From positions 1-9,632 of the forward strand of contig QMWA01000053.1 in assembly GCA_003661385.1 (NCBI GenBank): DNA of 9,632 nucleotides. Reading direction: 5' to 3'. The notes beneath the pieces are model-generated. The model was not told where the DNA came from, ran no database searches, and saw nothing but the letters and a program-made list of their open reading frames with translations. Position numbers and translations under genes: made by a program. Source of the DNA: Thermoproteota archaeon. GTDB taxonomy: Archaea > Korarchaeota > Korarchaeia > B14-G2. Below are positions 3,181-6,643 of this stretch, piece after piece (the first letter of the stretch is position 1; the number at the start of each line of letters is the position of its first letter).

Positions 3181-4512
3181 ATGTATGAGAGCGAGTTCCT
3201 CCAGCTGGTTAAGGAGCAGTCTCCTTGGGTTAGCGACTGGAGGGCTATAGAGGGGGATGAGAAGGTAGCTGAGGCCTTGAGCAGGGAGCACAGGCTGCTG
3301 TATAGGCTTGAGTACACGGGTAACCTCCTGGTAGTTGGCCCTAGGAGGTCGGGTAAGACTACCTTGCTGAAGCTTCTCGCCTACGACCTCATAGTCAATA
3401 GGAGGGTTGACAGCAGGAGGGTTGTCTACGTCTCCTGTGAGCCTCTCTATGACCACAGGGACCTCATCGAGCTCTTCAGGCTTCTGGATAGAGAGGGGGT
3501 GAGGTTCATCTTCCTGGACGAGGTCACCTTCGTGGAGGGGTGGGAGAAGGCTGTGAAGTACTACCTGGACTCTAAGCTGAGGCTTGGGAAGGTGCTCTAT
3601 GCTACAGGCTCCACCACCGCATTCCTGAAGAGGGAGCCTTTTCCAGGGAGGGATATAAGGGTTGCTCTCCACCTTCCAGTCGAGTTCAGGAGGTTTGTTG
3701 AGCTCTTTGCTGACAGCAGCGTGAAGAAGGCCTTAGACAACGAGAGCAAGCTCAGGTTCCACGTGGATGACCTCAACTACATGCTGCTCAAGTACCTCGA
3801 GTGCGGTGGTTTCCCTGAGCTCATGTACCAGCTTATGGAGGAGGGGAGGGTCAGGGCTAGCAGCATCGAAGCTCTGGGAGAGTGGATTGAGGGGGATGTA
3901 GCGAAGCTAGGCAGGAGCATCAGGCTGGCGCTCTGCCTGCTCCGAGGGGTTGTAGCCAGGTATGGGACTAGGGTCTCGCTCAGCTCTCTTGCGAAGGATT
4001 TTGAGCTAGGCTCCCACAAAGTGGCTAGAGAGTACCTTGAGCTCCTTGAGGAGATGCTTGTCCTGAGGCAGGTGCTTCAGGCAGATCCACCCAGGAGGCT
4101 CGTGGTACCGAGGAGAGAGAGGAAGGTCTACCTGACTGACCCAGCTCTCTATGGCATGTACCTCAGGAGGCTGCTCTACAGGAAGCTAGGTCAAGAGGAC
4201 ATCCCTAAGCTCATTGAGGGGGCTGTGGCAGAGTACCTGTTTAGGAGGTATGGCGAGGTGTACTATAGCTACCAGAGCGGCAGGGAGACAGACTTCACGC
4301 TACTAGACCACCCGACTGGCATAGAGGTCAAGTGGCAGGAGAGAATCTCAGAGAGAGACTTCAGCAACCCACACCTCTTCAAGAGGAGGATTCTCGTGTC
4401 AAGAAGCCAGCTCAAGCAAGAAGGGAGGGTTGAGATAGTCCCAGCATGCATGCTGCTATTGCGTGGGAGAGCACACACCTTATATCACATGGACTGGAGG
4501 GGGTGGAGATGA
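3181..4512 (+). CDS. AAA_14-type ATPase with C-terminal DUF4143 nuclease-like domain
   Basis: A 443-residue ATPase of the group that joins an AAA_14 P-loop domain to DUF4143. The Walker A motif GPRRSGKTT is at 53-61, Walker B FIFLDE at 109-114, and a sensor-1-like segment LYATGSTT at 139-146. A winged-helix-like stretch follows near 265-300. The C-terminal domain carries the residues of a PD-(D/E)xK nuclease fold: E351, D371 (RETDF) and E382-V-K384, all present, so it may be catalytically able; in the family at large this domain's activity is not established. The ATG at 3181 follows a TATA box by about 26 nt and gives an essentially leaderless mRNA. The gene starts a two-gene unit with DUF763 (ATGA overlap) and runs divergently from nurA. 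Members of this family are very common and variable in archaea, with roles proposed in DNA handling or toxin-like or defence functions; none can be proved here. The flanking palindromes suggest autoregulation through the wHTH region. Confidence 0.85.
   Translation: MYESEFLQLVKEQSPWVSDWRAIEGDEKVAEALSREHRLLYRLEYTGNLLVVGPRRSGKTTLLKLLAYDLIVNRRVDSRRVVYVSCEPLYDHRDLIELFRLLDREGVRFIFLDEVTFVEGWEKAVKYYLDSKLRLGKVLYATGSTTAFLKREPFPGRDIRVALHLPVEFRRFVELFADSSVKKALDNESKLRFHVDDLNYMLLKYLECGGFPELMYQLMEEGRVRASSIEALGEWIEGDVAKLGRSIRLALCLLRGVVARYGTRVSLSSLAKDFELGSHKVAREYLELLEEMLVLRQVLQADPPRRLVVPRRERKVYLTDPALYGMYLRRLLYRKLGQEDIPKLIEGAVAEYLFRRYGEVYYSYQSGRETDFTLLDHPTGIEVKWQERISERDFSNPHLFKRRILVSRSQLKQEGRVEIVPACMLLLRGRAHTLYHMDWRGWR
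4443..4454. repeat. 12-bp palindrome upstream of the internal DUF763 promoter
   Basis: AGCATGCATGCT is a perfect palindrome made of two overlapping GCATGC cores. It lies inside the 3' part of the ATPase coding region, 25 bp before a TATA-like element that precedes the DUF763 gene. The same core is repeated before nurA, so it may be a shared binding site, although coding constraint could also explain it. Confidence 0.3.
4479..4487 (+). promoter_or_regulatory. Possible internal promoter for the DUF763 gene
   Basis: CTTATATCA lies inside the end of the ATPase gene with its centre about 26 nt before the DUF763 ATG, the same spacing as the other promoters here. A GGAGG ribosome site at 4496-4500, 8 nt before the ATG, would also serve translation from the ATPase transcript. 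Both routes may operate. Confidence 0.4.
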
Positions 4513-5618
4513 GCTTAACTGGCATAGCAGACCTACCTCTCCACGATGGCTGGGTCCCTAGGTGGCTCTTCTCTAGGATGGTGAAGCTGGCTAGAGCCCT
4601 GGTCTCAGCTGTGATCTCAGAGTATGGTGGAGAGGAGCTCGTATCGAGGCTTGCAGACCCATTCTGGTTCCAGGCCTTGGGTTGTGTGCTCGGCTTCGAC
4701 TGGCACTCCTCTGGGCTCACCACGGTGGTCACCGCAGCCCTTAGAGAGGCTGTGAGCCCAACTGAGCACAGGGTGGCGGTCTGTGGGGGGAAGGGGAAAG
4801 CCAGCTTGAGAGCTCCATCTGAGATAGAGGAGGCCTGCAGGGAGATGAGGGTAGAGCACCTCACAGGTGAGCTCACTAGAGCCAGTAGGCTCGCTGCTAA
4901 AGTCGATAACGCATGCGTGCAAGACGGCTACCAGCTCTACCACCATGCCTTCGTGTTCACTGAAAGCGGCTTATGGGCTGTGGTGCAGCAGGGGATGAGC
5001 CCAGCTGACAGGACAGCTAGAAGATACCACTGGCTCTCAGCTAAGGTGAGGAGCTTCACAGATGAGCCTCATACAGCGATAGTAGCAGAGAGGGTCAGGA
5101 GTAGGGTGCTGGACATGACTGCCCATGAAAGCGAGGGCGCCAGGAAGGCCTCATTGGACCTGGTAAAGGAAGGCCCTAGGAGGCTAGCTAGGCTCATCGA
5201 CGAGGCCGCTAAGGGGCAGAAGACCCTGCTGAGGTGGATCCCAGCTGGCAGCTCTGAGGTGAGCTACCTGAAGATGCCTTGGAGCATAAACTGGAGGGCG
5301 CTAGAGGAGGCCTACCAGCTTCAGCCTAGCAGGTATGAGGAGCTTGTGGAGATAAGGGGGGTTGGGCCGGCTACAGTCAGGGGGCTAGCTCTGATAGCTG
5401 AGCTCATCTACGGTGAGAGGGCAAGCTGGAGAGATCCAGCTAGGTTCAGCTTCGCATTCGGCGGGAAGGACGGGGTGCCCTTCCCAGTCGACAGGAAGGC
5501 TCTAGATGAGGCTATAGAGTTCCTTACTACAGCTCTTGAGAGAGCTGATGTCAGGGGCAGGGAGAAGCTGGATGCCTTGAAGAGGCTTAGGAGGCTAGCT
5601 GCTACTTATACGGTATGA
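4509..5618 (+). CDS. DUF763 family protein
   Basis: A 369-residue member of the DUF763 family, conserved in many archaea and some bacteria and without a function known to me. The N-terminal block matches the family signature closely: TGIADLPLHDG at 4-14, PRWLFSRM at 17-24, and DPFWFQALGC plus LGFDWHSSGLTT at 50-72. A helix-hairpin-helix-like segment (LVEIRGVGPAT, 279-289) suggests contact with DNA or RNA, and the family block FAFGGKDGVPFPVDRKALDEA follows near 315. The length is typical. I chose the ATG at 4509 because the conserved region starts within a few residues and because it overlaps the ATPase stop codon as ATGA, with GGAGG 8 nt before it. An in-frame ATG at 4446 exists but would add 21 residues without family similarity. 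The DUF763 gene is probably co-transcribed with the ATPase; this pairing hints at a shared DNA-related job, which is inference. Confidence 0.9.
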   Translation: MSLTGIADLPLHDGWVPRWLFSRMVKLARALVSAVISEYGGEELVSRLADPFWFQALGCVLGFDWHSSGLTTVVTAALREAVSPTEHRVAVCGGKGKASLRAPSEIEEACREMRVEHLTGELTRASRLAAKVDNACVQDGYQLYHHAFVFTESGLWAVVQQGMSPADRTARRYHWLSAKVRSFTDEPHTAIVAERVRSRVLDMTAHESEGARKASLDLVKEGPRRLARLIDEAAKGQKTLLRWIPAGSSEVSYLKMPWSINWRALEEAYQLQPSRYEELVEIRGVGPATVRGLALIAELIYGERASWRDPARFSFAFGGKDGVPFPVDRKALDEAIEFLTTALERADVRGREKLDALKRLRRLAATYTV

Positions 5619-6075: not shown

Positions 6076-6570
6076 TTGTTGGCAGTCCCCTTAGGAGAGC
6101 TTGAGGAGAAGCTTGCTATCGCTAAGGAGGAGATGGGGAAGGCACCGAATATCGTCTACAGCCTCCTGAAGGAGGCTGTAAACCTGGTGTTCCAGGCTGT
6201 AAACGACGTGAAGGCAGCTAGAGAGGGAGGGCGCCTCCTCCCGATCAGGATGGCCTGCGCCAACGCGTGGCTCTCCGTATCTAAGGCTACGGACGCCCTG
6301 CTCGCAGCATACGGGCTTGGGGTGCCGAAGACCTCCAAGGAGAGGATGGAGAGGCTCTGGAGCCTAGCTGAGAGCAACCACACCATCGAGGTCTTCAACC
6401 TCCCAGAGAGGTTTGCTGCTCTGGAGAAGATCCTCATGCTGGATGGCTTCTATGACGGGGTTCTCAGCTATAGGGTCGTGAAGAAGCAGATAGGCAAGTC
6501 GATAAGGTACATATCTGACGTGGTGATGCTCATACTGGGCTCAGCTAAAAGCAAGAGTGAAGGTCAGTAA
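6076..6570 (+). CDS. Small all-helical protein, possibly PaREP1/HEPN-like
   Basis: A 164-residue protein predicted to be entirely alpha-helical, with no signal peptide. The central part (55-95: RMACANAWLSVSKATDALL, then an SKERMERLWSL stretch) resembles, from memory, the helical bundle of archaeal PaREP1-type and HEPN-like proteins, in which an A-x-W-x-x-x-x-K-A-T pattern precedes an S-x-x-E/R region. The catalytic R-x4-6-H of HEPN RNases is not clearly present, so an RNase role is not supported. The start is TTG at 6076 or the next TTG at 6079; a stop at 6055-6057 excludes longer forms, the ATG at 6062 is out of frame and closes after 10 codons, and the box A spacing agrees. Its final codons overlap the antisense guide sRNA. 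Function unknown. Confidence 0.7.
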   Translation: MLAVPLGELEEKLAIAKEEMGKAPNIVYSLLKEAVNLVFQAVNDVKAAREGGRLLPIRMACANAWLSVSKATDALLAAYGLGVPKTSKERMERLWSLAESNHTIEVFNLPERFAALEKILMLDGFYDGVLSYRVVKKQIGKSIRYISDVVMLILGSAKSKSEGQ

Positions 6571-6616
6571 TCGGCAAACTCATCACCAGTCAGGTGTCCC
6601 AGTCTTCATCACCCAA
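6561..6616 (-). ncRNA. C/D box guide sRNA with two 12-nt guides
   Basis: On the minus strand the order is box C GTGATGA (6612-6606), a 12-nt guide (6605-6594), box D' CTGA (6593-6590), a 3-nt spacer, box C' GTGATGA (6586-6580), a second 12-nt guide (6579-6568), and box D CTGA (6567-6564). Both C boxes fit RUGAUGA exactly, both D boxes are exact, and both guides have the 12-nt length typical of archaeal sRNAs that direct 2'-O-methylation with L7Ae, Nop5 and fibrillarin. By the rule of the fifth nucleotide before D or D', the modified bases would be the C in GUGUC of the target GUGUCCCAGUCU and the C in UAAUC of the target UAAUCGGCAAAC. A TATA-like element lies about 25 nt before box C. The RNA overlaps the last codons of the plus-strand gene. 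I did not recognise the target in rRNA or tRNA. Confidence 0.85.
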
Positions 6617-6634: not shown

Positions 6635-6643
6635 TTATTAAAG
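6635..6643 (-). promoter_or_regulatory. Promoter of the C/D box sRNA
   Basis: CTTTAATAA on the minus strand is centred about 25 nt before the expected 5' end, which falls about 2 nt before box C. The surrounding A/T-rich patch (TTATTAAAGTTAA on the plus strand) is nearly symmetric and could also start a plus-strand transcript near 6664. Confidence 0.6.

What the first reader, a model, noticed from the sequence alone, without database searches (positions are those of the whole stretch)
6561..6616. A complete C/D box guide sRNA gene in antisense to a protein gene's 3' end
Seen: two exact RUGAUGA boxes, two exact CUGA boxes, and two guides of exactly 12 nt, in the order C-D'-C'-D. This pattern is very unlikely by chance and matches archaeal 2'-O-methylation guides. 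A TATA-like element stands about 25 nt before box C. Box D and the end of the second guide overlap the stop region of the helical-protein gene on the other strand, so the two transcripts can pair. The predicted modified bases are cytosines in GUGUC and UAAUC contexts. The targets were not recognised and may be lineage-specific.
Basis: partly seen in the sequence, partly recalled or inferred. Interest (0 to 1): 0.75.

Follow-up and report, generated by a model that had tools for sequence, protein, structure and literature searches.

The report
Archaeal C/D guide RNA for 23S
This is a short archaeal guide RNA gene whose second guide matches the organism's own large ribosomal RNA, so it very probably directs a methyl group onto a conserved site there; such guides are common in archaea, so it is a well-supported but ordinary find.

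Summary
About 7e-6 such motifs are expected per window by chance. The "targets not recognised" gap is now largely filled. The D guide pairs through 11 consecutive Watson-Crick pairs with the same genome's 23S rRNA (C1840 in AAAUCGGCAAAC; E. coli A1672, next to helix 61). Guides for the same site were found in 23 other archaeal contigs, all 12 nt long. Guide and rRNA covary: in all seven genomes where both were read, U faces A or G faces C. The D' guide is weaker (8 consecutive pairs) and tentatively targets 23S C2136 (E. coli C1994), across helix 61, which would make this a long-range double guide, as proposed for some Ignicoccus and Thermoproteus sRNAs. Fibrillarin, Nop5 and L7Ae are encoded in the genome. 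The antisense overlap with the neighbouring ORF is only 7 nt and probably has no function. Expression and methylation were not measured. Verdict: real, a new member of a well-known kind, modest interest.

The parts
6606..6612 (-). box C, GUGAUGA
   Evidence: exact RUGAUGA consensus
6594..6605 (-). D' guide AGACUGGGACAC; tentative target 23S CUGUCCCAGCCC, C2136 of the own 23S (E. coli C1994), 8 consecutive WC pairs
6590..6593 (-). box D', CUGA
6580..6586 (-). box C', GUGAUGA (3-nt spacer CUG to D')
6568..6579 (-). D guide GUUUGCCGAUUA; target 23S AAAUCGGCAAAC, C1840 of the own 23S (E. coli A1672), 11 consecutive WC pairs
   Evidence: covariation with rRNA
6564..6567 (-). box D, CUGA
6635..6642 (-). 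TATA-like element TTTAATAA, starting 30 nt upstream of box C; probable own promoter
   Evidence: promoter role inferred from position
6076..6570 (+). neighbouring 164-aa ORF; no Pfam match above cut-off, weak homologues in one relative and a paralogue in the own genome; its stop codon region overlaps the sRNA by 7 nt

Best explanation
The 49-nt core is an archaeal C/D box sRNA gene, probably with its own promoter, in the gap between two genes of the other strand. The RNA folds into a C/D k-turn and a C'/D' k-loop and is bound by L7Ae, Nop5 and fibrillarin. Its D guide anneals to 23S rRNA just 3' of the 5' strand of helix 61, and fibrillarin methylates the 2'-O of C1840 (E. coli position 1672). 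Its D' guide probably anneals just across the same helix and directs methylation of C2136 (E. coli C1994), so the RNA bridges the two strands that close domain IV. Shown here: the boxes, the spacing, the D-guide match, guide-target covariation, and the protein genes. Inferred: transcription, RNP assembly, methylation, and the D' target.
For: Perfect box and spacing architecture, chance about 7e-6 per window. The D guide has 11 consecutive WC pairs to the own 23S through the N+5 nucleotide; about 0.1% of shuffled guides or random window 12-mers do as well. The same guide between C and D/D' boxes occurs in 23 archaeal contigs against 9 bacterial (presumably chance) hits in a collection of bacterial and archaeal genomes, and all 23 archaeal hits have a 12-nt guide where three lengths were allowed. 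Guide and rRNA covary: the own sRNA and two Archaeoglobaceae have guide U facing rRNA A, four other genomes have guide G facing rRNA C, 7 of 7. Fibrillarin, Nop5 and L7Ae genes are in the genome. Helix 61 is a reported methylation hotspot, and Ignicoccus sR114 and Thermoproteus sR51 are reported long-range guides to this part of 23S (PMC4644070).
Against: No RNA-seq or methylation data. Position 1 of the D guide is a mismatch (A facing A). The D' guide has only 8 consecutive pairs, below the 9-pair criterion of PMC4644070, and 14-21% of shuffled or random guides reach 8 or more somewhere in 23S. The organism's 16S rRNA is missing from the assembly and its tRNAs were not scanned, so another D' target is possible. 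No close relative was available to test conservation of the locus itself.
Confidence: 0.94

Rival explanations
1. It is a C/D box sRNA in which only the D guide works on rRNA; the D' guide is empty or targets something else (16S, a tRNA, or nothing).
For: The D' match is 8 pairs and not significant by itself; one third of archaeal C/D sRNAs show no significant 16S or 23S complementarity (PMC4644070).
Against: The D' match lies across helix 61 from the D target, includes two bases (AG) in which the own 23S differs from its class, and falls in the segment that holds human Cm3820, guided by SNORD74.
Confidence: 0.4
2. The RNA acts mainly as an antisense regulator of the neighbouring ORF's mRNA.
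For: Box D and the stop codon region overlap on opposite strands.
Against: Only 7 nt overlap, within the box and guide end that bind proteins and rRNA; ORF-end overlaps are common in archaeal C/D genes and the 3' overlaps tested were neutral or slightly negative (PMC7994747); the guide is conserved elsewhere while this ORF has almost no homologues.
Confidence: 0.02
3. Chance motif or decayed sRNA pseudogene.
For: No expression data exist.
Against: Chance expectation about 7e-6 per window; all boxes intact; guide matches the own, lineage-altered rRNA sequence better than the class consensus.
Confidence: 0.02

Closest known systems
Archaeal C/D box sRNAs (RNA-guided fibrillarin 2'-O-methylation; Dennis et al. 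2015, PMC4644070)
   Same: C-D'-C'-D order, RUGAUGA and CUGA boxes, two 12-nt guides, short D'-C' spacer, N+5 target rule, helix 61 region of 23S rRNA as target.
   Different: Nothing in the mechanism; this member matched no curated Rfam family at gathering score.
Ignicoccus hospitalis sR114 (D target 23S C1961, D' target C2265 in that paper's numbering) and Thermoproteus tenax sR51
   Same: D and D' guides on 23S sites about 300 nt apart, by the paper's E. coli calibration points in the same region of domain IV; same assignment of guides for sR114.
   Different: Exact nucleotide identity could not be checked: the published alignment and the Ignicoccus 23S were not available. By interpolation the sR114 D' site lies about 2-5 nt from ours.
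C/D sRNAs of Thermococcus, Archaeoglobaceae, Desulfurococcales, Heimdallarchaeota and other MAGs found here
   Same: Same guide for the same 23S nucleotide.
   Different: In most the guide stands before D', not D, and the partner guides are unrelated.
Human SNORD74 (28S Cm3820)
   Same: The modified C lies in the segment CACUGUCCCUACC, homologous to the tentative D' target CUGUCCCAG (primer sequences in PMC6856654).
   Different: Eukaryotic; that the modified C is exactly the same nucleotide rests on my memory of the SNORD74 guide.

Membership tests
Archaeal C/D box sRNA | Boxes C/C' RUGAUGA and D/D' CUGA in order C-D'-C'-D | tested here: met
   all four exact
Archaeal C/D box sRNA | Two guides of about 10-12 nt ending at D' and D | tested here: met
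   12 and 12 nt
Archaeal C/D box sRNA | At least one guide with 9 or more consecutive WC pairs to rRNA through N+5 | tested here: met
   D guide, 11 pairs, own 23S C1840
Archaeal C/D box sRNA | Second guide also targets rRNA (double guide) | tested here: inconclusive
   8 consecutive pairs to 23S C2136; not significant alone
Archaeal C/D box sRNA | Guide-target pairing kept through compensatory change | tested here: met
   7 of 7 genomes, U-A or G-C
Archaeal C/D box sRNA | Genome encodes fibrillarin, Nop5, L7Ae | tested here: met
Archaeal C/D box sRNA | Terminal stem next to C and D | tested here: inconclusive
   only GG/CC (2 bp) next to the boxes, read from the sequence
Archaeal C/D box sRNA | 50-70 nt stable transcript bound by the RNP | not testable with these tools
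   no RNA data
Archaeal C/D box sRNA | 2'-O-methylation at the predicted nucleotide | not testable with these tools
   no methylation data

The most novel reading that the evidence does not exclude
A double-guide sRNA that bridges both strands of 23S helix 61, the helix that closes domain IV, acting as a folding chaperone as well as a methylation guide, whose guides have co-evolved with lineage-specific changes on both strands of that helix.
Probability: 0.4. Interest if true: 0.35.

Novelty: new member of a known kind. Interest (0 to 1): 0.22.

Why it matters
It adds a well-supported guide with an identified target to a poorly sampled archaeal lineage. It also shows a guide that changed together with an otherwise conserved 23S position, which is good evidence that the pairing is under selection. 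If the D' target is right, it is another case of a long-range double guide at helix 61. None of this changes the understanding of the system.

Tried and rejected
Rfam at gathering score gave no match in the window. BLAST of the region against 30 relatives found no orthologous locus, so conservation at this site could not be tested. The genome's 16S was absent; the 16S genes of relatives that were scanned gave at most 7 consecutive pairs for the D' guide. The partner guides of the two sRNAs found in the class did not find a good 23S site.

Full report
The window is contig C53 of an archaeal draft genome (1.74 Mb, 206 contigs, 91% complete). Twenty-five other genomes of its class are held, all of other families. 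Two sRNA matches in the class correspond by position to MAGs labelled Thermoproteota. I suspect the class is Korarchaeia, because one relative is a single 1.6-Mb contig like Korarchaeum cryptofilum, but this is an inference and nothing below depends on it.

Observation. The minus strand from 6612 to 6564 reads GTGATGA-AGACTGGGACAC-CTGA-CTG-GTGATGA-GTTTGCCGATTA-CTGA. All four boxes are exact and both guides are 12 nt. With box probabilities from an order-3 model of the window, 6.8e-6 such motifs are expected per window and 0.0012 per genome. The pattern C-D'-C' occurs twice in the genome and zero times when read backwards. A TATA-like TTTAATA starts 30 nt before box C, which would place transcription start within a few nt of box C. 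Since both neighbouring genes lie on the other strand, an own promoter is likely needed; about 20% of the archaeal C/D genes studied have a TATA-like motif upstream (PMC7994747).

Target of the D guide. The genome's 23S gene (contig C20) contains AAATCGGCAAAC, which pairs with 11 of the 12 guide bases consecutively, including the fifth base before box D. Of 4000 random 12-mers from the window, 5 did as well, and of 4000 shuffles of the guide, 4. The nucleotide to be methylated is C1840 of the own 23S, E. coli position 1672 by alignment, just 3' of the 5' strand of helix 61.

Conservation and covariation. A scan of the genome collection (bacteria and archaea) for box C, TTTGCCGA[GT]T and box D with a flexible guide length gave 32 hits, 23 archaeal and 9 bacterial. 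The archaeal ones span Thermococcus, Archaeoglobaceae, Desulfurococcales, Heimdallarchaeota, Aenigmatarchaeota and others; all 23 have exactly 12-nt guides, although three lengths were allowed, and most show a further pair of boxes next to it. Where the 23S of the same genome was available, the guide follows the rRNA: the own sRNA and two Archaeoglobaceae have U facing A, and four other genomes have G facing C. The own 23S departs from most of its class at two positions of the site (AACUCGGCAAAU in most relatives, AAAUCGGCAAAC here; L012 also ends in CAAAC), and the own guide matches both. Putting the own guide on the class target costs 3.5 kcal/mol.

Target of the D' guide. The best own-23S match is CTGTCCCAGCCC (C2136, E. 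coli C1994) with 8 consecutive pairs. Alone this is not significant: 14-21% of shuffled or random guides reach 8 or more. Three facts raise its standing. It lies across helix 61 from the D target, and the two own segments cofold into that helix. The pairing includes the AG in which the own rRNA differs from the CU of its relatives, so the pairing is stronger on the own sequence (-14.7 against -10.2 kcal/mol). The same segment in human 28S (CACUGUCCCUACC) holds Cm3820, the SNORD74 target (PMC6856654). I give this target about 0.55.

Known context. Dennis et al. (PMC4644070) name helix 61 a methylation hotspot and list Ignicoccus sR114 (D target C1961, D' target C2265) and Thermoproteus sR51 among sRNAs whose two guides bind sites far apart in sequence but close in structure. 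By their calibration points (E. coli A1912 = 2178, G2251 = 2520), position 2265 is near E. coli 1996-1999, within a few nt of our D' site. The exact nucleotides could not be compared.

Machinery. Fibrillarin and Nop5 lie side by side on contig C3, and two L7Ae-family genes are present.

The antisense overlap. The ORF 6076-6570 ends in a stop codon at 6568-6570, so the overlap with the sRNA core is 7 nt. The ORF has no Pfam assignment above cut-off and only weak homologues. Overlap of C/D genes with ORF ends is common, and the 3' overlaps tested were neutral or slightly negative (PMC7994747; the cases described there carry the stop codon of an upstream gene, so they are same-strand). I see no reason to assign it a function.

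Verdict. It is a new member of a well-known kind.

Noticed in passing
L003 1501 onwards (own genome, contig C20:4469-4517, + strand): A second exact C-D'-C'-D sRNA (guides CTCCGAGCCTT and AGATCTTGAGTA) about 0.9 kb downstream of the 23S gene; no good target in the own 23S. The sequence just before it resembles a tRNA 3' end, but ARAGORN finds no tRNA.
   Followed up: partly
6076-6570: Helical-looking 164-aa protein without a family; weak homologues in three places of one relative (G017) and one paralogue in the own genome.
   Followed up: partly
L018: The 23S gene of relative G002 is about 500 bases longer than those of its relatives, with the two sites studied here about 840 instead of 300 nt apart; this looks like an intron or insertion.
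   Followed up: no
4446-5618: Strong DUF763 protein (E 5.7e-131), and next to it a cupin gene on the other strand.
   Followed up: no
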